Origin: Campylobacter portucalensis
Lineage (GTDB): Bacteria; Campylobacterota; Campylobacteria; Campylobacterales; Campylobacteraceae
NCBI RefSeq assembly: GCF_009690845.1
Contig: NZ_VWSJ01000002.1
Coordinates: forward strand, 1 to 64,000
DNA length: 64,000 nucleotides
Direction: 5' to 3'
Of this stretch, positions 22,325-34,287 are shown one piece after another. Under the pieces are notes generated by a model. The model worked only from the letters and a program-made list of their open reading frames with translations, ran no database searches and had not been told where the DNA came from. Made by a program: the position numbers and the translations under genes. Position 1 is the stretch's first letter. Every line of letters starts with the position of its first letter.

Positions 22325-22679
22325 TTAAAAAACCTGGAAATGCTTTAAAATCAATGGTTTTTCACACAAAATGTATATAAATGGTACTAAAATATTGCTG
22401 TTTGTGCATTCTGGTTTAAAGAATGAAGAATACTAAGATTTTGGAAAGACTAAGGTTATAAGTAAAGTAATAAACAATATAACAAAAGATTTTCAAAAAG
22501 AATTGGGCGAATACGGAAATAAAACTGCTTTGGGCGAATTTAAGGATGCTCATACAAAAGCGTTTTGAGATGATAGGAATTTACCAGCATGCAAAAAACG
22601 TCAAAAACCGACGATGGAAGAGATAAGAAAATCTATTGAAAGTATAATAAGAAAAATTTTATTTAAGAGAGGTGGAGAT
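22325..22679 (+). pseudogene. Decayed reading frame upstream of the DUF262 gene
   Basis: A coding-like trace can be followed across this gap: PGNALKSMVFHTKC in one frame, then, after a shift, NGTKILLFVHSGLKNEEY, a stop, a 44-residue open stretch from DFGKTKVISK to DAHTKAF, and another stop. The later part is in frame with the DUF262 gene but separated by the stop at about 22567. I do not recognise the family. It looks like a broken accessory gene left by an insertion at the end of guaA. Confidence 0.45.
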
Positions 22680-24386
22680 ATGGCAACTACTATAGAGGTA
22701 AATAAAAGTAGTATTAAAGAGCTGTTAATGACAGGGGCAAAAGAAAAATTTTTGATCCCTGAATACCAAAGGCCTTATGCTTGGACTGATGATCAAGTTT
22801 TAACACTCTTTGAAGATTTAGTGGAATACACAAATAATCAAAATGAGTCATCATATTTTTTAGGCTGTATTGTTTCTTTTAGCAATAAAAACAAGGAGCA
22901 AGAAATAATAGATGGACAGCAACGAATAACTACTTTATTTTTGCTATTAAGAGCAATTCATAGAAAACTTCAAAAAATGAGTGATAGCAAGGAAAAGGAT
23001 AATTTTATTAGACAGATTGAGCTGGCAATCTGGAAAATAGATGAATTAACAAGCGTTGCTGACTATAGTTCAGTTCTTATTGAGTCAAAAGTATTAGAAG
23101 TAGAATATAATCAGATTCTAGAAAATATTTTAAAAACTGGAGAAGTTGAGGATAAAAGCAAGGATAGATATTCGCTAAATTACAAGTTACTAATAAAATT
23201 ATTAGATGAATATGCAAATAATGAGCCTTTAAATTTCTATAGATTTACAAATAATGCATTAAATAAGACAATTGTATTACCAATTAAAGCTGACACTCAA
23301 GAAACTGCATTAACAATATTCTCTACTTTAAATGATAGAGGCCTACCTTTATCAGATGCTGATATTTTTAAAGCCAAAATATATAATAAACTTAATGAAG
23401 AGAATAAAGCTAAATTTGTGGAAGAATGGAAAAACCTTACATTAAGATCAGAAACGGCAGCAGAAAGTATTCAAAAGTTGTTTTACTATTATATGTTTTA
23501 CTTGAGAGCTATGGACAAGGATAAAAAGACAACTACACCTGGACTTAGAAAATATTTTGCAGAAGATAGCTTTTCTAGACTTTTTAAGGACAATCTATTA
23601 CAAAACCTAAAAGATATTTTAGAATTTTGGGAGGTTGTTAATTGCAGAGAAGCAAAAGAATCAAAATGGACAACTAATTTTTCTATATTAAGTATTTTAG
23701 ACATTCTTAGCTCATACCCAAATGAATTCTGGAAATATCCAGTAATTATTTACTATTTAAAAAATAAGAATAGTGAAAATTTTGAAGAATTATTTTTGAC
23801 ATTTTTAAGAAAATTATTTGTAAATTTATTTAAAGTATATATAGTATCGCCAACAATAAACTCAGTTAAAACAAGCGTTTTGAATTTAAATTCGTCTATT
23901 TTACATGATAAAGTGTTAAAATTTGATTTTAAAAATGTAACAGAAGATGAGTTGAAAAATGGCATTAAACATTTGCATAAAAATGCTGTTAGAATGTTAT
24001 TAAAACTACTTGCTTACAATACAGAAGAACAAAATGAATTATTACCTTATAATTGGGAAATTGAACATATATTACCGCTGAAATGGCAGCCAAGCTATTT
24101 TAACACAAATAATGATGAAGTAAATGAATTAATAGAGACTATAGGTAATAAGATTCCTTTTGAGAAGAGATTAAACATTATTGCTAGCAATGGATACTTT
24201 TCAAAAAAACAAGAACAGTATGCAAAATCTAATATAGCGATTACAAAGGCAATGAGTAATAGTAATATTAAAGATTGGAAATTAGAAGAAATTAGGGAAC
24301 GCAACATAAGAATAATTGATGAAGTGATTGATACATTTAATTCATGGGATAGTAGTGTAAGCGATAATAATATATTATCAAAATGA
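22680..24386 (+). CDS. DUF262/DUF1524 protein (GmrSD-like restriction endonuclease)
   Basis: A single-chain protein of about 568 residues. The N-terminal DUF262 (ParB/sulfiredoxin-like) domain has IPEYQRPYAW and DGQQRITTLF, the nucleotide-hydrolysis motifs of the GmrS half. The C-terminal DUF1524 HNH nuclease has NWEIEHILPLKWQ, with the metal-binding histidine, as in GmrD. Proteins with this layout restrict phage DNA with modified bases. I start it at the ATG at 22680, which has GGTGGAG just upstream, rather than the in-frame ATG at 22614. It stands alone, close to the CRISPR-Cas locus and flanked by decayed sequence, which suggests horizontal acquisition. Confidence 0.85.
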   Translation: MATTIEVNKSSIKELLMTGAKEKFLIPEYQRPYAWTDDQVLTLFEDLVEYTNNQNESSYFLGCIVSFSNKNKEQEIIDGQQRITTLFLLLRAIHRKLQKMSDSKEKDNFIRQIELAIWKIDELTSVADYSSVLIESKVLEVEYNQILENILKTGEVEDKSKDRYSLNYKLLIKLLDEYANNEPLNFYRFTNNALNKTIVLPIKADTQETALTIFSTLNDRGLPLSDADIFKAKIYNKLNEENKAKFVEEWKNLTLRSETAAESIQKLFYYYMFYLRAMDKDKKTTTPGLRKYFAEDSFSRLFKDNLLQNLKDILEFWEVVNCREAKESKWTTNFSILSILDILSSYPNEFWKYPVIIYYLKNKNSENFEELFLTFLRKLFVNLFKVYIVSPTINSVKTSVLNLNSSILHDKVLKFDFKNVTEDELKNGIKHLHKNAVRMLLKLLAYNTEEQNELLPYNWEIEHILPLKWQPSYFNTNNDEVNELIETIGNKIPFEKRLNIIASNGYFSKKQEQYAKSNIAITKAMSNSNIKDWKLEEIRERNIRIIDEVIDTFNSWDSSVSDNNILSK

Positions 24387-25052: not shown

Positions 25053-25724
25053 ATGTTAGAAATTAAAAGCAAAATTCCATCAAAAAATTTAGAAATTTAT
25101 AAAGGTTTATCAAGGCTGATTCAAGGATATTTTTATTATATCTTACCACAAGAAGAGCATTTGGGCTACACTCATAACAGTGGCAAAATTTTTAAAAAAA
25201 CAAATTTTTGTTTCACTCTTAAAGATGGGCTTTTACACATCAAATTTAGTGCTTTGGAAAAAGAACTAGAAGAGATGGTTGCAGTTTATTTGTTAAAAAA
25301 TGGCTTAAAACTTGGGGAAATTCATATAATTGATACAATCATAAATTTAAGCGATCACTCTACAAATGAAACAAATATAAATGTAAAGGGATGCGTTGTT
25401 TGCAATATAAAAGGACTTTTGGATAAAAAAGTATATTTAGAGCCAAATGATTCAAGACATCTTGAAATGATGACAAAAAATTTAATTCAAAAATATGAAA
25501 CTTTTTACAATAAAGCCTACGATGATGAGGTTAAGATAGAGCTTTTATGGCAAGATTTTGATAAATTTCAAAAATTTTACTATGGAAACAATAAAAATTA
25601 TATGAAAGCTTGGCTTGGAGTTTGGAATATAAAAGCAGATAACAACTTAATAAATTTAGCCCTTTCTACTGGGCTTGGAAGTGGCGTGATGAGCTATGGA
25701 TGCGGGTTTGTAGAAAAAGTTTAG
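25053..25724 (+). CDS. cas6: CRISPR-associated endoribonuclease Cas6
   Basis: Cas6 cuts the precursor crRNA within each repeat. The 223-residue protein has the repeat-associated ferredoxin-like fold and ends in the glycine-rich RNA-binding loop LSTGLGSGVMSYGCGFVEKV, diagnostic of Cas6. A histidine near the N-terminus (EEHLGYTH) is a plausible catalytic residue. It lies 173 bp before cas8b, with its own -10 element and an inverted repeat after its stop, so it may form a separate transcript from the rest of the operon. Confidence 0.9.
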   Translation: MLEIKSKIPSKNLEIYKGLSRLIQGYFYYILPQEEHLGYTHNSGKIFKKTNFCFTLKDGLLHIKFSALEKELEEMVAVYLLKNGLKLGEIHIIDTIINLSDHSTNETNINVKGCVVCNIKGLLDKKVYLEPNDSRHLEMMTKNLIQKYETFYNKAYDDEVKIELLWQDFDKFQKFYYGNNKNYMKAWLGVWNIKADNNLINLALSTGLGSGVMSYGCGFVEKV

Positions 25725-25776
25725 CAAGGCTTTTCATAATATAATAATAATTTCAAAACCTAAAAGGTCGCCTTGC
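25724..25776. repeat. Inverted repeat between cas6 and cas8b
   Basis: GCAAGGC (25724-25730) and GCCTTGC (25770-25776) form a perfect 7-bp stem, extended by TTTT/AAAA pairing with a small bulge, around an AT-rich loop of about 40 bases. It starts at the cas6 stop codon. It may be a terminator-like or regulatory structure that separates cas6 from the effector operon. Confidence 0.45.
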
Positions 25777-25842
25777 AAAGTAAAATTATATCAAAAGATA
25801 TATTTTATGTCAAAATCATTTCATTATATATTAATATAAAAT

Positions 25843-25871
25843 TTGACAAAAAAATTATTTTTTACTATAAT
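25843..25871 (+). promoter_or_regulatory. Consensus sigma-70 promoter of cas8b operon
   Basis: TTGACA (25843-25848), a 17-base spacer and TATAAT (25866-25871) match the bacterial housekeeping consensus in all twelve positions. The cas8b ATG is 26 bases downstream, with AAAGGA at a normal distance. A perfect consensus is rare in this AT-rich genome type and predicts strong, constitutive transcription of the interference and adaptation genes. Confidence 0.75.
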
Positions 25872-25897
25872 TTGCAAAATAACAAAAGGAAGCAATA

Positions 25898-27664
25898 ATG
25901 AGCGATATTATAAAAACTTTTTACAATATAGGAAGTATCTATAAAAGCGACGAATTAGCTATAAAAAATGATGCTTACAAATATGATAATATCAAAACTT
26001 ATCTTTTTGACATAGAAACAAAAGAGATAACTCCAAGCTTTAATATCTTAAAAGATGACTTAATTATCACTCGCTTTGGTGTTGGCTCAAACTCAGGAAA
26101 TCTTTTTCCAAATCAATTTTTTGATAAAAAAACGCATTTAAATTTAGACAAATTTATAAAAGGTGTTTTAACTGCTTGCAAAAATTTATTATCAAAATTT
26201 AGCGATGATTTTAGTGATGCAAGTTGTGATCAATATGAAATTTTAACTACATTAAAAAATATAGACAAAGAATTTTTTAAAGATAAAAAAGATGAAATCT
26301 CAAAACTGCAAGAAGAAAAAGACACAAAAACAGCAACTTATTTAGCTTTATCTTATAAACAAAAACCAATTTCTGCATATTTTAAAGATATCTATTTAAG
26401 CCATATTTCTAAAATTGAAAATTTAAATATTTATGGTTATGATATGATATCAAACGATAAAGGAATTGGCGGAGATGCAAATTTGGCATTTTGTTCAGTA
26501 AATGAACTTCCAAAAAATTTACAATATGTAAAACCTAGACTTTTACCGCTTAATCCAAAAAATGCAAAAATCGTTAAAATCGGCTATGACGCTATGGATA
26601 AAAAACTATCTCATAATTTTTATGGTCTAAAAATGGCCATTTTACCAACATTTTTAACAAATGACAAAAATATCTCAAAAAAGATTTTAGAAATTTTAGA
26701 AAAAACTACAAATGGCGATATAAATAGCATTAAAGATGGCGAAGAGATGATTGATTTAACTCTAGAAAATAGCGGACTTTCTTTAAAAGATTATCCTGTT
26801 TTAGCAACTATCTTATTTTTTAATAAAAACAATGCTGCTGTAAATTTATATTTAACTATAGATGATGTTTTACCATCTTATATAACCTACATTGCAAAAA
26901 ATCTTGCTAAATATAAAATAAAAGCTTTTAATTCTAAAAGTGATCTCAAAGATATAATTTATTTGCAAAAGCTTTTTAATGATAACTTAGAAATTATGCA
27001 AATTTTACTTACCGATAAAAGAATAAAATTAGATATATTGCTTACCAAACTATCAAATTTGATAGTTTTTGGTAGTAATAATATAGCTTATTTTAACAAT
27101 GTTAAATGGGATAAATATTTTAATAACTTCTATAATAATAGAACTATAGAAAGCATAGAAAAGTATATAAATTTCTTTAATGATATAGGCAAAATAAAAT
27201 TTAATTTAAGAAAGGATATAGATGTGGAAAATTTATCACTAGATAAAAAACTAGATTCACTAATGGCAAATAGTAGCTTTTTGCAAAATCCGAATTTAAA
27301 AAGTGCATATCTTCTTGGTATGCTATCAGCAGCCACAATAAACTGGCAATTTGGAGTTTCTAAAAAAAGCTCATATGCTAATTGGCTAAATAATATAGGA
27401 GTTATAAACAGATCAAATCTTGAAAAAATTTATAAAAAATGCGATGAAACTATAAGAAAAATTTGTGCTACTTCTGGTGCTTTGAATAAAACTATCAATA
27501 CCATAAAAGAAAAGCTTTTAAAAACACTACCAGAAACCGTAACAAGCAGTGAAATAGTAAAAAGCTCACACATTACGATAGCTTTTGCGATGGGTGGAAG
27601 TGATTTTAATAAATATATAAAAGATATAAATAAAAATGAAAAAACAGGAGAAGAAGATGCTTAA
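25898..27664 (+). CDS. cas8b: Type I-B Cascade large subunit Cas8b (Csh1 family)
   Basis: The 588-residue protein lies in the slot and has the size of the large Cascade subunit that recognises the PAM in type I-B systems. Csh1-like features include the N-terminal segment starting with a YNIGSIY motif, an asparagine/lysine-rich middle and a helical C-terminus ending FAMGGSDFNKYI. Large subunits diverge fast, so family placement also rests on its position before cas7-cas5-cas3. Its stop overlaps the cas7 ATG by 8 bp. Confidence 0.85.
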   Translation: MSDIIKTFYNIGSIYKSDELAIKNDAYKYDNIKTYLFDIETKEITPSFNILKDDLIITRFGVGSNSGNLFPNQFFDKKTHLNLDKFIKGVLTACKNLLSKFSDDFSDASCDQYEILTTLKNIDKEFFKDKKDEISKLQEEKDTKTATYLALSYKQKPISAYFKDIYLSHISKIENLNIYGYDMISNDKGIGGDANLAFCSVNELPKNLQYVKPRLLPLNPKNAKIVKIGYDAMDKKLSHNFYGLKMAILPTFLTNDKNISKKILEILEKTTNGDINSIKDGEEMIDLTLENSGLSLKDYPVLATILFFNKNNAAVNLYLTIDDVLPSYITYIAKNLAKYKIKAFNSKSDLKDIIYLQKLFNDNLEIMQILLTDKRIKLDILLTKLSNLIVFGSNNIAYFNNVKWDKYFNNFYNNRTIESIEKYINFFNDIGKIKFNLRKDIDVENLSLDKKLDSLMANSSFLQNPNLKSAYLLGMLSAATINWQFGVSKKSSYANWLNNIGVINRSNLEKIYKKCDETIRKICATSGALNKTINTIKEKLLKTLPETVTSSEIVKSSHITIAFAMGGSDFNKYIKDINKNEKTGEEDA

Positions 27665-28592
27665 AAAAGAGATTTTATTTCTTTGGGATGGTGAAAATTT
27701 TAATCCAAACGGAGATATGCTAAATGATAATGCTCCTAGAATGGATGAAGAAACAGGTTTAGCAGAAGCTACTGATGTTAGAATCAAAAGGACTATAAGA
27801 GATGAGTTGATTAAAGATGATCCAAATCAGATTTTTATAAAAATATACGAAGATAACAATGGAAAAATATTAGATGCAAAAACAGCAATGATAGAAGAAA
27901 CTAAACTAAATATAGATATAAAAAAAGCAAATAAAGATGAAATTATGAAAGCAATTTTATCAAATTTCATTGATATTCGTGCTTTTGGCGGGGTATTGCC
28001 AATTTCTGATAAAAAAGAGAAAGAGATTAAAACAAAAAGTGTAAGTTTTACAGGTCCAGTTCAGTTTAGGATCTCAAAATCTCTACATAAAGTTTCGCTT
28101 AAACATATAAAAGGAAGCGGAGCTTTTGCAAGCGGAAACGATAAAGATGCAAAAACACTTAGAGAAGAGTCTTTTTTGGACTACGCATTTTTTGCAACTT
28201 ATGGAATTTTTGATAACAATAATGCCAAAAATACAAACTTTAGCGAAGATGATGCTAAAAAAATTCTAAAAGCTCTTTGGAATGGAACTAAAAATTTAAC
28301 AACTCGTACAAAAATAGGTCAAATACCTAGATTTTTGCTAATCATATCTTATAAAAACAATGCTTTTACAGGAGATTTAAACAATCTAGTTTCAATAAAT
28401 TCACAAAAAGAAGATGAAGCAATCAGAAGTATAAAAGATTTTAAAATCGATTTTTTAAATTTAAAAGAAAAACTTAAACTATACAAAAATGATATAGAAA
28501 AAATTGAATTCATTAGCGATTTTAACTTTAAAAATTTAAACGAAGATGAATTTGATAAAAGTTGGGTAGAAATAGATGTTAATAGCCTTTGA
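27657..28592 (+). CDS. cas7: Type I-B Cascade backbone subunit Cas7 (Csh2 family)
   Basis: Cas7 coats the crRNA as the repeated backbone of Cascade. The product of about 311 residues shows Csh2 family traits: the N-terminal FLWDGENFNPNGDML, RIKRTIRD, the IDIRAFGGVLPI strand and the FTGPVQFRISKSLHKV loop. I choose the ATG at 27657 because AGGAG precedes it; an upstream in-frame ATG lacks a site. It overlaps cas8b and cas5, indicating one polycistronic message. Confidence 0.92.
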   Translation: MLKKEILFLWDGENFNPNGDMLNDNAPRMDEETGLAEATDVRIKRTIRDELIKDDPNQIFIKIYEDNNGKILDAKTAMIEETKLNIDIKKANKDEIMKAILSNFIDIRAFGGVLPISDKKEKEIKTKSVSFTGPVQFRISKSLHKVSLKHIKGSGAFASGNDKDAKTLREESFLDYAFFATYGIFDNNNAKNTNFSEDDAKKILKALWNGTKNLTTRTKIGQIPRFLLIISYKNNAFTGDLNNLVSINSQKEDEAIRSIKDFKIDFLNLKEKLKLYKNDIEKIEFISDFNFKNLNEDEFDKSWVEIDVNSL

Positions 28593-29280
28593 TTTATGGG
28601 GAGATTATGCACATTTTAGCCATCCTGCGACGATTTACTCATCTTTAACCTACCCAGTGCCACCAAAAACGACCATAATGGGGCTTTTGGGGGCTGTAAT
28701 AGGATTAAAAGAGTATGGAGAGCTTGCAAATTTAAAATATAGTGTTAAGTTAAACTCGCCCCTAAAAAAGAAAACTATGATTTTTAATGGCATAAAAGAG
28801 GCTCTTAACTCAAGCATGAAATTAGCTGATGGATACCAAGATGCTAGCGAAAAAAAGCAGTTTTATAAAGAACTAATTTGCCAACCAAACTACAGTATTT
28901 ATCTAAATTTAGAAAATTTAGATAAATGTTTTCAAGATAAAATTTATAAAAATTTAAAAGAACATAAAAGCATCTATACGCCTTATCTTGGTATAAATTT
29001 TTGCATAGCTGACTTTAAATTTAAAGAAATAAAAAGCTTTAATAAAATAGAAGATAAAGAAATTTATGTTTCTAGCTTTGTTTTAGAAAAAGATTTTATT
29101 TTTCAAAAGGATAATTTTAACGCTAAACTTACATCCTATACGATGCCTTGCGATGTAGAAAATGGTAGAATCTTTAAAAAGTTTAAAAACTTCATCATAG
29201 AAATAAACTTAGGCAAACTTCTTACTAAAAATAGTGGCGAAATTTATGAAATCAATGGTGAAAGACTCTATTTTGTTTGA
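28576..29280 (+). CDS. cas5: Type I-B Cascade subunit Cas5
   Basis: Cas5 caps the 5' handle of the crRNA. The 234-residue protein starts with the family pattern AFDLWGDYAHFSHPAT and has the conserved YPVPPKTTIMGLLGAVIG segment that forms the first ferredoxin-like helix and loop. It overlaps cas7 by 17 bp and cas3 by a few tens of bases. Confidence 0.92.
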   Translation: MLIAFDLWGDYAHFSHPATIYSSLTYPVPPKTTIMGLLGAVIGLKEYGELANLKYSVKLNSPLKKKTMIFNGIKEALNSSMKLADGYQDASEKKQFYKELICQPNYSIYLNLENLDKCFQDKIYKNLKEHKSIYTPYLGINFCIADFKFKEIKSFNKIEDKEIYVSSFVLEKDFIFQKDNFNAKLTSYTMPCDVENGRIFKKFKNFIIEINLGKLLTKNSGEIYEINGERLYFV

Positions 29281-31429
29281 TAAATTTCTATCTCATCCAA
29301 ATAAAATATTCATAAATCACATTCTAGGAATGATTTATGAAAATGATACTAAACTAGAAAAACAGGTTAAAATTTATCACGATATTGCAAAACTTAAAAA
29401 TAATTTTCAAATTTATATAAGAGATAAATCAAAAGCAAAAAATAAAGATCACTCTTTGCTAAGCGGATACTTTTTTGTTTCAAATAGCGACTTTGATGAC
29501 AAAGATACTCTTTTTGGATTTTTAGCAATAATTTCTCATCACGCATATATAAAAGATTTTTATTCTTTAAAAGATCCAAACAAAAACTTTGGTGAATGCT
29601 ACCAAAATGGCATTGAGTTTAGCTTTGCAAATGAAGTTATAAAAAATGCAAAAAATTTTAATGAATTTAAAGATATAAAATTTGATAATATACACGAAAA
29701 AGCTAAAAAATTATCAAGATATTTATTATTATCCGAATTTAAGCATAAATTTAGTTATGATGATTTTATAGATTTTAAATCTCTTTACTCAAATTTAATC
29801 TTTAATGATAAATTTGAAGCTATTTTTAGCTCTAAATTTACTCCATCAAAGCCCATTCAACTAAAACCACTTGAAGAATATATAAAAAACCTACCAAAAA
29901 ACAAAAAAAGAGAAGATTTTAGACAATTTGTTTTATCAAATTTTGATAAAAATCACTCTTTATATATCCTGACTGCCCCAACAGGTTATGGCAAAACATT
30001 AACTGCTCTAAATTTCGCTCTTAAATTTAAAAAAGAAAGAGTTATTTTTTCTCTTCCTTTCACATCTATAATCGACCAAACTTATGATATCATCTCAAAA
30101 ATTTATCCTCATTTAGAAGTGCAAAAAATCCACCATAAAACCACAATTCAAGATGATAAAAACGAAGGTATAGATTTAGATAGCGATAGATATTCAAAAG
30201 TTAAATTTATGTTAAACTCATTTAGTGCCGATATAAATATCACAACAATGTATCAGCTAATTTACGCTATATTTGGTAATTCAAACAAAGATAATGTCAA
30301 ATTTCATAGCCTTAAAAATAGCGTCATCATAGTTGATGAAGCTCAGGCTTTACCGTATAAATTTAGACAAGATTTTATCAAGCTTTGTGAAATCATCTCA
30401 GAGAAATTAAACTCTGTTTTTATATTTATGTCAGCAACAATGCCAGTTATCAATAGTCCTAAATTTAAAGAAATCTCAAACCTAAGCTATTTCAAAGATC
30501 AAAATAGATATAAAATAAAATATTTAGATAAAAATGAAGATGAAATCATAGAAAAAATAAAACTAACCGCCAAAGATAAACATACTCTTGTTGTTGTAAA
30601 TACTATCAAAAAAGCTCAAGAACTTTACTTTAAATTTAAAGATGAGTTTAAAACATACTCCATAAATGGATATATGACTGATGAGCATAAATTACAAATC
30701 ATAGATGATATTAAAAAGCATCTTAAAAATAAAAATGAAAAAATACTTCTAATTTCTACACAATCCATTGAGGCTGGAGTTGATCTTAGTTTTGAAGTTG
30801 GTTTTAGAGAAACAAGCCCGATAAGTTCTATCATACAAACAGCAGGCAGGATAAATAGGAGCGGGGAATTTGAAAATGGCATTTTATATGTCTTTAATAG
30901 TATTAGTAAATTTGAATCTTTGATATATGGAGATTTACAAAAGATAAGCGATAATATCTTTAAAATTTTAAAGCAAAAAGAAGAGATAAAAGAGAGTGAA
31001 ATTTTAGAATTTTCTAATTTATACTTTAAAAAAATCCATATAAATTTAGAAAAATTACGCCTTAATGACAATATGGCAAAACTTGAATTTGAAACTATAA
31101 ATAATGAAATTGATAAAATTATAAAAGAAAGTAACTATAAAAAACTTATTATCATAGAGCCAGAGTCTAATTTTATTTCGAATTTAGAGAAAGATTTTTT
31201 TAGCTACAAAAACAACGATGAGTTTAAAATCAAAGATTTTAGAAATAATATCATTAAAAAAATTATAAAATATGGTGTAAACATAAGCCAAAATGATATT
31301 AAAAATTTTGGCACTTGTCTAGAAAAAGTAAAATTTTGCGATATTTATTATTTACCATATAGTTCGCCAGAATATGATAAAAATGTAGGAATTTTAAAAT
31401 TCAACTTCAAAGAAGAGGCGTTTTCATGA
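29246..31429 (+). CDS. cas3: CRISPR-associated nuclease-helicase Cas3
   Basis: Cas3 is recruited to target-bound Cascade and shreds the DNA. The roughly 727-residue protein has an N-terminal HD nuclease (H45-D46 in YHDIAKLKNNF, then DHSLLSGY, ISHHAY) and an SF2 helicase: Walker A TAPTGYGKT, DEAQ box (VDEAQALP), SATMP, STQSIEAGVDLSF and QTAGRINRSG. All motifs are intact, so interference should work. The exact start is unsure (GTG 29234, ATG 29246 or ATG 29255 lie within the cas5 3' end); none has a strong ribosome site, consistent with coupling. It overlaps cas4 by 4 bp. Confidence 0.93.
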   Translation: MKSMVKDSILFDKFLSHPNKIFINHILGMIYENDTKLEKQVKIYHDIAKLKNNFQIYIRDKSKAKNKDHSLLSGYFFVSNSDFDDKDTLFGFLAIISHHAYIKDFYSLKDPNKNFGECYQNGIEFSFANEVIKNAKNFNEFKDIKFDNIHEKAKKLSRYLLLSEFKHKFSYDDFIDFKSLYSNLIFNDKFEAIFSSKFTPSKPIQLKPLEEYIKNLPKNKKREDFRQFVLSNFDKNHSLYILTAPTGYGKTLTALNFALKFKKERVIFSLPFTSIIDQTYDIISKIYPHLEVQKIHHKTTIQDDKNEGIDLDSDRYSKVKFMLNSFSADINITTMYQLIYAIFGNSNKDNVKFHSLKNSVIIVDEAQALPYKFRQDFIKLCEIISEKLNSVFIFMSATMPVINSPKFKEISNLSYFKDQNRYKIKYLDKNEDEIIEKIKLTAKDKHTLVVVNTIKKAQELYFKFKDEFKTYSINGYMTDEHKLQIIDDIKKHLKNKNEKILLISTQSIEAGVDLSFEVGFRETSPISSIIQTAGRINRSGEFENGILYVFNSISKFESLIYGDLQKISDNIFKILKQKEEIKESEILEFSNLYFKKIHINLEKLRLNDNMAKLEFETINNEIDKIIKESNYKKLIIIEPESNFISNLEKDFFSYKNNDEFKIKDFRNNIIKKIIKYGVNISQNDIKNFGTCLEKVKFCDIYYLPYSSPEYDKNVGILKFNFKEEAFS

Positions 31430-31923
31430 CTTTTTCACAAGAAAATATAACAGGAACTTTGGTAAATTATTATGCAACCTGCAAAAGAGAGGCTTGGCTG
31501 TATTCTAGAAAAATTCACGCACGCCAAGATGATGAAAATATTTTAATGGGCAAAGTTTTAGCTGATTTAAAGGAAAATTTGCACGATTTTCCATATTCAA
31601 ATCTTAAATTTGATAAAATTGCAAAACAAAAAGGGCATTACATAATCACTGAGTATAAAAAAACTTTAAAAAATGAAAATGCTGCTAAAATGCAACTTCT
31701 TTTTTATATTTACACCCTTAAAAATTCTCTAAATTTAAAGAAAATTTATGGAAAAATAATAAGCGGTAAAAAAGTCATAAAGGTAGATGATGATAGTGAA
31801 AATTTTAAACTTATGGGCGAACTTTTAAATGAGATGAGTAAATTTTTAAGCACCAAAATCCCACCAAAAGTGATTAAGAGCAAATTTTGTAAAAGCTGTG
31901 CTTATAATGACTATTGTTTTTAG
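31426..31923 (+). CDS. cas4: CRISPR-associated exonuclease Cas4
   Basis: Cas4 trims prespacers and helps select those next to a correct PAM. The 165-residue protein has the four Fe-S cysteines: C19 (ATCKREAWL) and C155, C158, C164 (FCKSCAYNDYC). The RecB-type nuclease core is present: KFDKIA, then TEYKKT, then the MQLLFYIYTL helix. It is translationally coupled to cas3 (ATGA) and 8 bp before cas2. Confidence 0.92.
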   Translation: MTFSQENITGTLVNYYATCKREAWLYSRKIHARQDDENILMGKVLADLKENLHDFPYSNLKFDKIAKQKGHYIITEYKKTLKNENAAKMQLLFYIYTLKNSLNLKKIYGKIISGKKVIKVDDDSENFKLMGELLNEMSKFLSTKIPPKVIKSKFCKSCAYNDYCF

Positions 31924-31931
31924 AGAATTTA

Positions 31932-32210
31932 ATGTATATAATTTTATTTTACGATATTTCAAACAGCGAAGAAAAAGAAAAAAATAATGCAAATAAAGTA
32001 AGAAAACTTGTAGAAAAATATATCTCAAGAGTTCAATTTAGCGTATATGAAGGCGAGATCAGAGAGAGTGATTATAAAAAACTAACCTCTCAACTCAAAA
32101 AACTCATCCACATTAAATTTGACTCAATTGTCATATATAAATTTGCTAAACAAAGCTACACAAAAAGAGAAGTTATAGGAATAGATAAAAATGAACCACT
32201 TTTTAGTTGA
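31932..32210 (+). CDS. cas2: CRISPR-associated protein Cas2
   Basis: Cas2 dimers bridge Cas1 dimers in the spacer-integration complex. The 92-residue protein starts MYIILFYDIS with the conserved D8, has the RVQFSVYEGEI strand-turn-strand and the second ferredoxin-like half ending FSVLS-like EPLFS. The ATG at 31932 gives the family's normal N-terminus. It precedes cas1 here, the reverse of the usual cas1-cas2 order. Confidence 0.94.
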   Translation: MYIILFYDISNSEEKEKNNANKVRKLVEKYISRVQFSVYEGEIRESDYKKLTSQLKKLIHIKFDSIVIYKFAKQSYTKREVIGIDKNEPLFS

Positions 32211-32219
32211 AAGAGATTT

Positions 32220-33212
32220 ATGAAGACAGACAGAACACATTTTTTATTAAACAGCGGTAAACTTTATAGAAAAGATAATAATATATATTTTGACAAATAC
32301 GCCGAAGATGGCACTGTTTTAAATACAAAAATCATACCAATAAATTCTATAAATGAAATCTACATCCTTGGGAAAGTTGAGCTTGATACTTACACTATGG
32401 CATTTTTAAGCACAAATAATATCTTGATTCATATATTTAGTCACTATGGAAGTTTTCGCGGAAATTTCTATCCAAACTCACCAAATTCGGTTAATAAAAG
32501 TGGATTTGTACTTTTAAATCAAGTAAGAACTTTTGACGATGAGATAAAAAGAGTTGCAATTGCAAAGGAGATAACAAAAGCCAGGATGATAAATTCTATA
32601 AATAATTGCACAAAAAGGGGTGTTAAATTTCAAAGCAATACACACCTCGAGGCTTTAAGAAATGCCAAAAATATAGCACAAATTATGGCTTGTGAAGGAG
32701 CTTTTGCAAAAGAATACTTTACAAAATGGAACGAAATCATAAAAAATCAAAAAAGCTTTAAATTTACAACTCGTTCAAAACGCCCACCAATAGATAAAAT
32801 AAACGCTTTTATAAGCTACATCAATACCAGAATTTATAATGTTTGTTTAAGTGAAATTTATAAAACTGAGCTTGACCCAAGGATATCATTTTTGCACGAG
32901 CCAAACTATAGATCCCTTAGCTTACATCTTGATTTGGCTGAAATTTTTAAGCCCATTTTAGGAGATAATTTGATTTTTAATATGCTAAATACTGGCGAAA
33001 TAACTCCAAAAGATTTTCAAATAGATGCTGGCAGGATAAAATTTACAAACGAAGCGGTTCAAAAAATAGAGATAAAAATGATAAAATCTCTTACTACGCA
33101 AGTAAAATTTGAAAATAATTTTTTGACTTATAGACAAATAATTAGACGAGAAGCAAATCAAATAAAGAAATTTATTTGTGAAAACTATCCTTATGAAGGA
33201 TATGTTAATTAA
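32220..33212 (+). CDS. cas1: CRISPR-associated integrase Cas1 (type I-B)
   Basis: Cas1 integrates spacers at the leader end of the array. The 330-residue protein has an N-terminal beta domain and a helical catalytic domain with the metal-binding residues: Glu in MACEGAFAKEYF, His in FLHEPNYRS and Asp in LHLDLAEIFKP. All are intact. It is the last gene of the operon; the leader and the short array follow within 165 bp. Confidence 0.95.
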   Translation: MKTDRTHFLLNSGKLYRKDNNIYFDKYAEDGTVLNTKIIPINSINEIYILGKVELDTYTMAFLSTNNILIHIFSHYGSFRGNFYPNSPNSVNKSGFVLLNQVRTFDDEIKRVAIAKEITKARMINSINNCTKRGVKFQSNTHLEALRNAKNIAQIMACEGAFAKEYFTKWNEIIKNQKSFKFTTRSKRPPIDKINAFISYINTRIYNVCLSEIYKTELDPRISFLHEPNYRSLSLHLDLAEIFKPILGDNLIFNMLNTGEITPKDFQIDAGRIKFTNEAVQKIEIKMIKSLTTQVKFENNFLTYRQIIRREANQIKKFICENYPYEGYVN

Positions 33213-33374
33213 CTAAATATTTATTTACAAAATCTCTTTAAAGCTAAACTTAATAATATAAAATTCCCTAATTTTCAGGTTTTTGAATCTGCAAATAGTT
33301 TTTTTAAGCAATTATTAAGATATTTATTTTATAATACATCGTAGCAATTTCAAATATATAGATGTTTGGTTGCT
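33213..33374 (+). promoter_or_regulatory. Probable CRISPR leader
   Basis: An AT-rich, gene-free stretch between the cas1 stop and the first intact repeat. The leader is placed here because the intact repeat is on this side and the degenerate repeat on the other. No repeat-like sequence is visible inside it. Confidence 0.6.
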
Positions 33375-33469
33375 GTTTAAATTTAATCCTATGGATTTTG
33401 AAACGAATATAGTTTGGTTGATGAAATAATAGAAAATACGTTTAAATTTAATCCTATAAATTTTAAAAT
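33375..33469 (+). CRISPR. Minimal CRISPR array: two 30-nt repeats, one 35-nt spacer
   Basis: Repeat 1 (33375-33404) starts GTTTAAATTTAATCCTAT and ends GGATTTTGAAAC, the GAAAC end typical of type I-B repeats. The spacer is 33405-33439. Repeat 2 (33440-33469) is identical over its first 18 bases and differs at four positions in its 3' part (its end reads AAATTTTAAAAT), as is usual for the leader-distal terminal repeat. No other copy of the repeat is visible in the window. The array directly follows an intact set of cas genes. Confidence 0.85.
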
Positions 33470-34287
33470 TCTACTAATTAAAAATTTAATCTCTTTTTGA
33501 ATGTTATTTTTTATCCTTAGATACCTTTTGTCTTTTTATTTTAAAGGCTTTATTGATTTAGTTGTCTTATAAATTATGGAATTTAGGTTATATTGAAATA
33601 TGATTGACTGAAAAATATTAAATACATAAAGTCTTTTTTTGCAATTAAAAAATTTGATAGTAAATGAATAGAGCTTATCTTATGCATCAAAAAAATATAT
33701 AAATTTGAGTAGATAAAATGAAAAACATATAGGAGCTTCGTAGCAGATTATACAGAAGTATAAATTTAGCTAAATATTGTTTTAAAATTACAGAAAATGA
33801 AACATGATATTTAAAAAAAAATATTTAAAATAAGAATTTTTATTGAAAATAAATGAGATTTTACTAAATGCAAAACTATTTTAAAGGATAATATAGTAAA
33901 TAAAAATAAAGCTACTTGTTTTTTCTATAAAATAGTAATAGGCAGATGAAAAATTAATATACAAAGATTAAATATTTTGATTTTATCAAATACAAATAAA
34001 AAAATATTGATTTAAATATAATTAAAAAGCGATTAAGTATAAACTCTTTGCAAAAAAATATTAAAAGAAAAAGATATTTATTAGATAGATCTATAGATAA
34101 GCAAAATATATGAAGTGTAGAATTTATTTAAAATCTATTTTCAAATATCCAATTGTATGATCGCCAAAGATAATAAAATATAATTTATATCCATTTTGTA
34201 TTTAATCAATTATTCTATGAATTTAATTAGTTTTTAATATATTTATAATATAATTACTGAAAATCATTACCATAATTAAGGATTATT
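33470..34287. other. Gene-free AT-rich stretch after the CRISPR array
   Basis: No intact reading frame on either strand. A short coding-like trace on the + strand near 33733-33805 (ELRSRLYRSINLAKYCFKIT) is interrupted by stops and not recognised. The last 40 bases hold the Fur-like box and ribosome site of the receptor gene that follows. Confidence 0.5.
34258..34271 (+). promoter_or_regulatory. Fur-like box before the TonB receptor gene
   Basis: TGAAAATCATTACC matches 12 of 14 positions of the right part of the classical Fur box (TGATAATCATTATC) and ends 16 bases before the ATG. The 12-mer TGAAAATCATTA also occurs before the ferrosome-like operon (48831-48842). Confidence 0.5.

What the first reader, a model, noticed from the sequence alone, without database searches (positions are those of the whole stretch)
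33375..33469. Single-spacer CRISPR array behind a full type I-B cas set
The repeat (starting GTTTAAATTTAATCCTAT, ending GAAAC) occurs only twice, the second copy degenerate at its 3' end. All eight cas genes look intact. Such a minimal array suggests deletion of older spacers, a very recently reset locus, or adaptation that is rarely used. Alternatively, other arrays lie elsewhere in the genome.
Basis: seen in the sequence. Interest (0 to 1): 0.72.

Follow-up and report, generated by a model that had tools for sequence, protein, structure and literature searches.

The report
One-spacer type I-B CRISPR array remnant
A Campylobacter-like bacterium carries a complete set of type I-B CRISPR genes with only one stored memory next to them, most likely what is left after the rest of a longer array was deleted; this is an ordinary, if extreme, state of a known immune system.

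Summary
Two copies of a 30-nt repeat lie at 33375-33404 and 33440-33469, around one 35-nt spacer, behind cas6-8b-7-5-3-4-2-1, all full length. The repeat occurs nowhere else in the 1.77 Mb, 99.97% complete genome. The genome does have a second, unrelated system: a type III locus with an RT-Cas1 fusion and its own array of 14 repeats. Close relatives of this I-B locus use nearly the same repeat and leader with 10, 20 or more, 41 and 68 copies. Terminal repeats with altered 3' ends are normal in those arrays, so the degenerate second copy is the usual trailer-end repeat. Repeat 1 is intact and lacks the terminal repeat's four substitutions. That argues against a freshly reset, single-repeat locus. 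It fits contraction by recombination among internal repeats, which leaves the last spacer and terminal repeat behind. The leader is conserved and dN/dS of the cas genes is 0.06-0.20, so the machinery looks maintained. Two related genomes carry cas8b-cas1 with no array nearby, so array erosion recurs in this family. The spacer target is unknown. Low interest: a known kind of locus in a minimal state.

The parts
25053..25724 (+). cas6
   Evidence: TIGR01877, PF01881; glycine-rich loop at the C terminus; 82% identical to G026
25898..27664 (+). cas8b (TM1802-type large subunit)
   Evidence: PF09484; 84% identical to G026
27636..28592 (+). cas7 (Csh2)
   Evidence: TIGR02590, E 3.5e-75; 92% identical to G026
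28576..29280 (+). cas5 (Cas5b/h)
   Evidence: TIGR02592; 87% identical to G026
29234..31429 (+). cas3 (HD + helicase)
   Evidence: TIGR01587, TIGR01596; HD, Walker A and DEAQ motifs visible in the translation
31426..31923 (+). cas4
   Evidence: TIGR00372, PF01930
31914..32210 (+). cas2
   Evidence: TIGR01573, PF09827
32220..33212 (+). cas1
   Evidence: TIGR03641/TIGR00287, PF01867; 89% identical to G026/G015
33243..33374 (+). leader, with the conserved junction TTTGGTTGCTG before repeat 1
   Evidence: aligns to G026 and G015 leaders with scores 44 and 45 against shuffled maxima of 25 and 26
33375..33404 (+). repeat 1, intact; ATCC-TAT-GGAT hairpin and 3' TTTGAAAC (inferred 8-nt crRNA 5' handle)
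33405..33439 (+). spacer, 35 nt; no protospacer found
33440..33469 (+). repeat 2, terminal, 4 substitutions (GG to AA, G to A, C to T); internal hairpin lost

Best explanation
This is an ordinary cas-adjacent type I-B array in a contracted state. A longer array lost its internal spacers, most likely by recombination or replication slippage between identical repeats. What remains is the leader, one intact repeat, the oldest (trailer-end) spacer and the polymorphic terminal repeat, which resists recombination because it differs from the rest. Shown: the anatomy, the intact cas genes, the conserved leader, the absence of further copies, and long arrays with the same repeat and leader in relatives. 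Inferred: that the array was once longer in this lineage; that transcription from the leader and Cas6 cleavage 3' of the ATCC/GGAT stem yields one crRNA with a TTTGAAAC handle; and that the locus can still acquire spacers at repeat 1.
For: Relatives with the same cas genes carry 10 (G026), 41 (G015), 20 or more (G011), 10 (G001) and 68 (G033) repeats behind cas1. Their terminal repeats are altered at the 3' end in the same manner (G015 ...TTTTTAAAT, G033 ...TTTGAAT, G001 ...GAAAT, G111 ...GAAAT). R1 has no R2 substitution and matches the G026/G015/G001 consensus in its 3' half, so it was copied from an intact repeat. The leader is conserved to the repeat junction. dN/dS is 0.06-0.20 in all eight cas genes with no internal stops. 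Array size forms a continuum in the family down to 3 repeats (G111, G027; G007 similar) and to cas8b-cas1 sets without a nearby array (G062, G063). The review PMC8047081 describes repeat-mediated deletion, stability of the last spacer-repeat unit and 3' terminal-repeat polymorphism.
Against: No other strain of this species was available, so no longer ancestral array was seen directly. Trailer flanks do not align with those of relatives, so R2 cannot be shown to be the same ancestral terminal repeat. An old one-spacer array whose R2 decayed after a single acquisition would look the same.
Confidence: 0.68

Rival explanations
1. An old, static single-spacer array: one spacer was acquired long ago, the terminal repeat decayed afterwards, and adaptation has hardly operated since, perhaps because the type III RT-Cas1 system or GmrSD restriction carries the defence load.
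For: Only one spacer; R2 differs from R1 at 4 of 30 positions, so it is not young; a second, better stocked system exists.
Against: Cas1, Cas2 and Cas4 show dN/dS 0.06-0.12 with no sign of relaxation (a pairwise test over long divergence cannot see a recent change). Altered terminal repeats are normal in long arrays of relatives.
Confidence: 0.17
2. Recent collapse to a single terminal repeat followed by one new acquisition (a freshly reset locus).
For: One spacer next to an intact leader; collapse and repopulation is known in Legionella (Deecker and Ensminger 2020, as described in PMC8047081).
Against: Acquisition duplicates the leader-adjacent repeat, so R1 and R2 would be identical after a reset onto the terminal repeat. 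They differ at 4 positions, and R1 has the intact consensus 3' half.
Confidence: 0.08
3. A regulatory mini-CRISPR (CreA- or CreR-like) that guides Cascade to repress a toxin or the cas operon instead of invaders.
For: Type I-B; two repeats, one of them degenerate, around one spacer, as in two-repeat creA genes (PMC8501985).
Against: R1 is a perfect repeat behind a canonical leader at the normal array position. No seed match of 10 nt or more to the spacer occurs elsewhere in the window, including the cas promoter region. No partial match to its first 24 nt within 3 mismatches occurs elsewhere in the genome. No ectopic repeat lies near cas6 or cas8b.
Confidence: 0.03
4. Assembly artefact: a longer array collapsed in a fragmented short-read assembly.
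For: 98 contigs; read type not known.
Against: The array lies inside contig C12 (74.6 kb) with continuous flanks. No other contig holds any further copy of the repeat within 3 mismatches, so the missing spacers would have to be absent altogether.
Confidence: 0.04

Closest known systems
Type I-B CRISPR-Cas loci of related Campylobacter-family genomes (G026, G015)
   Same: Same gene order, 82-93% identical proteins, repeat differing by 1-2 nt, alignable leader, array directly behind cas1
   Different: Those arrays have 10 and 41 repeats; here there are two, with one spacer
Polymorphic terminal repeat and array contraction as reviewed in PMC8047081
   Same: Intact leader-adjacent repeat, 3'-altered terminal repeat, retained last spacer
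   Different: Deletion inferred here from anatomy only; no strain series
creA mini-CRISPR of CreTA modules (PMC8501985)
   Same: Two repeats around one spacer near type I-B cas genes; the second repeat is degenerate
   Different: Canonical leader and perfect first repeat here; no partially matching promoter target found

Membership tests
Type I-B CRISPR-Cas | Signature cas3 plus cas8b with cas7 and cas5 of the Csh/TM1802 kind, and cas6 | tested here: met
Type I-B CRISPR-Cas | Adaptation genes cas1, cas2, cas4 | tested here: met
Type I-B CRISPR-Cas | Leader and repeat array adjacent to the cas genes | tested here: met
   minimal: 2 repeats
Type I-B CRISPR-Cas | crRNA production and interference activity | not testable with these tools
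   needs RNA sequencing and a plasmid or phage assay
CreA/CreR regulatory mini-CRISPR | Spacer-like sequence whose seed matches a promoter of a toxin or cas gene | tested here: not met
   no seed of 10 nt or more elsewhere in the window; none in the genome within 3 mismatches of the first 24 nt; seeds of 9-10 nt outside the window not tested
CreA/CreR regulatory mini-CRISPR | Both repeats diverged from the cognate repeat | tested here: not met
   R1 is intact in its 3' half and matches relatives there

The most novel reading that the evidence does not exclude
The single retained spacer is kept on purpose: one guide is under selection as a fixed immune or regulatory RNA, protected from loss by the terminal-repeat mutations that also remove its hairpin, while the RT-Cas1 type III system does the learning.
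Probability: 0.04. Interest if true: 0.55.

Novelty: new member of a known kind. Interest (0 to 1): 0.2.

Why it matters
It is a clean natural example of the lower limit of a cas-adjacent array, with relatives that span 68 repeats to no array. That makes this family useful for studying how arrays shrink and whether terminal-repeat changes stop complete collapse. Taken alone it changes no current view.

Tried and rejected
Spacer against phages and plasmids: only weak partial matches, E 0.1 or more. A Marinitoga virus terminase hit (27/33) is in the same reading frame as the spacer's open frame EYSLVDEIIENT. The same peptide motif then turned up in a phage ClpP-like protease, so the motif does not discriminate; no protospacer is claimed. 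A second terminase hit (Fusobacterium phage phiBB) lay in a different frame and was dropped. Degenerate and exact spacer patterns in viral contigs gave nothing that matches the spacer itself (only gave the motif hits). No spacer match in 153 family genomes; no match to its degenerate reading-frame pattern in 398 genomes of the order or 153 of the family. A 36-nt match at G000:C20:43567 (E 2e-4) lies in decayed AT-rich sequence and runs across the spacer-repeat border; taken as chance. Promoter scan of the leader no better than shuffles. RNA folding of the repeats alone not significant.

Full report
Observation. The window holds two direct repeats, 33375-33404 and 33440-33469, with a 35-nt spacer between them. 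R1 is GTTTAAATTTAATCCTATGGATTTTGAAAC. R2 shares its first 18 nt and differs at four positions after that. The 26/30 match at 65-nt spacing exceeds 300 Markov resamples of the intergenic region. The stronger proof is comparative: relatives with the same cas genes have near-identical repeats in long arrays at the same place.

Surroundings. Upstream on the same strand lie cas6, cas8b (TM1802 family), cas7 (Csh2), cas5, cas3, cas4, cas2 and cas1, in type I-B order. Each aligns over nearly its whole length with G026 and G015, genomes of another genus in the same family, at 82-93% identity, without internal stops. Pairwise dN/dS is 0.06-0.20 for all eight genes. This shows purifying selection since the split; it cannot exclude a recent loss of use. 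The 132 nt before R1 align with the leaders of G026 and G015 far above shuffled controls and share the junction TTTGGTTGCTG. Repeat 1 can form an ATCC-TAT-GGAT hairpin directly before an 8-nt TTTGAAAC tail, the usual Cas6 layout, although the fold of the repeat alone is not better than shuffles. R2 has lost that hairpin.

Genome context. The genome has 1.77 Mb in 98 contigs and is 99.97% complete. The full repeat matches once within 3 mismatches, at R1, and the only exact copies of its first 18 nt are R1 and R2. A second CRISPR system lies on contig C20: an RT-Cas1 fusion, Cas2, Cas6, a Cas10-like protein and several RAMP proteins, with 14 copies of a different repeat. The window array is thus the only stored I-B memory found, though not the only CRISPR memory of the cell.

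How the array got this small. Relatives carry 10, 41, 20 or more, 10 and 68 repeats behind cas1. A survey of 24 family genomes with a close Cas1 (the window's own included), plus one from another family (G058), found arrays down to three repeats (repeats re-counted); in three of them the contig ended too soon to tell. In two (G062, G063) cas8b to cas1 are present with no array nearby; G063 keeps a leader-end motif followed by a repeat-like stub (TTTGATTGCTG-TGCAAATTTATTC). In several long arrays the last repeat is altered at its 3' end, a pattern that PMC8047081 describes as common and possibly protective against collapse. The window's R2 is such a terminal repeat. New spacers are added by copying the leader-adjacent repeat. 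If the array had been reset to R2 alone and then gained one spacer, R1 would carry R2's substitutions. It carries none, so R1 descends from an intact repeat that stood beside the leader. The simplest history is loss of the internal units, leaving the leader-adjacent repeat, the last spacer and the terminal repeat. An old one-spacer array whose R2 decayed later is the main alternative and cannot be told apart without other strains.

Function. The mechanism offered is standard type I-B immunity with one guide: transcription from the leader, Cas6 cleavage in R1, Cascade loading, Cas3 degradation of a matching target. Every step after the anatomy is inferred. No protospacer was found in phages, plasmids, viral contigs or 153 family genomes. 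The spacer's open frame EYSLVDEIIENT resembles the C-terminal end of a phage terminase and part of a phage ClpP-like protease, but two unrelated proteins share the motif, so this is only a lead. A regulatory role like CreA or CreR is unlikely: there is no seed match of 10 nt or more elsewhere in the window, no close match in the genome, no ectopic repeat at the cas promoters, and a perfect first repeat behind a canonical leader (PMC8501985).

Verdict. It is a known kind of locus at the small end of its size range.

Noticed in passing
G000:C20 about 46.8-64 kb (L041): Second CRISPR-Cas system in the same genome: type III with an RT-Cas1 fusion (750 aa), Cas2, Cas6, Cas10-like and RAMP proteins, and a 14-repeat array of a different repeat (TTTAAAAGCAAAGCCCCGAGTTAAGGGGATTGAAAC). 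Subtype not assigned.
   Followed up: partly
window 25053-33212 against L042/L043: dS to G026/G015 is lower in the effector genes cas8b, cas7, cas5, cas3 (0.35-0.53) than in cas6, cas4, cas2, cas1 (0.6-1.1), suggesting that effector and adaptation parts have different histories.
   Followed up: partly
L045 (G001) and L052 (G011): These congeners share the adaptation genes, a similar repeat and array position (Cas1 80%), but their effector genes are only 30-40% identical and no cas8b match was found (in G011 the contig starts within cas3): apparent module exchange behind one kind of array.
   Followed up: partly
L086 (G063) and L087 (G062): I-B sets, cas8b to cas1, without any array within the 19 kb read; G063 keeps a leader end plus a repeat stub. 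Whether arrays lie elsewhere in these genomes was not checked.
   Followed up: partly
window 22614-24386: GmrSD-type (type IV) restriction gene directly upstream of the cas operon, so the region is a small defence cluster.
   Followed up: no
window 33405-33439: Spacer frame +1 reads EYSLVDEIIENT, similar to part of a phage ClpP-like protease (L057) and to the C-terminal end of a phage terminase (L054, L058).
   Followed up: partly
window 33470-34287: About 800 bp of AT-rich DNA between the array and a TonB-dependent receptor gene with no evident feature; not studied beyond repeat and promoter scans.
   Followed up: no
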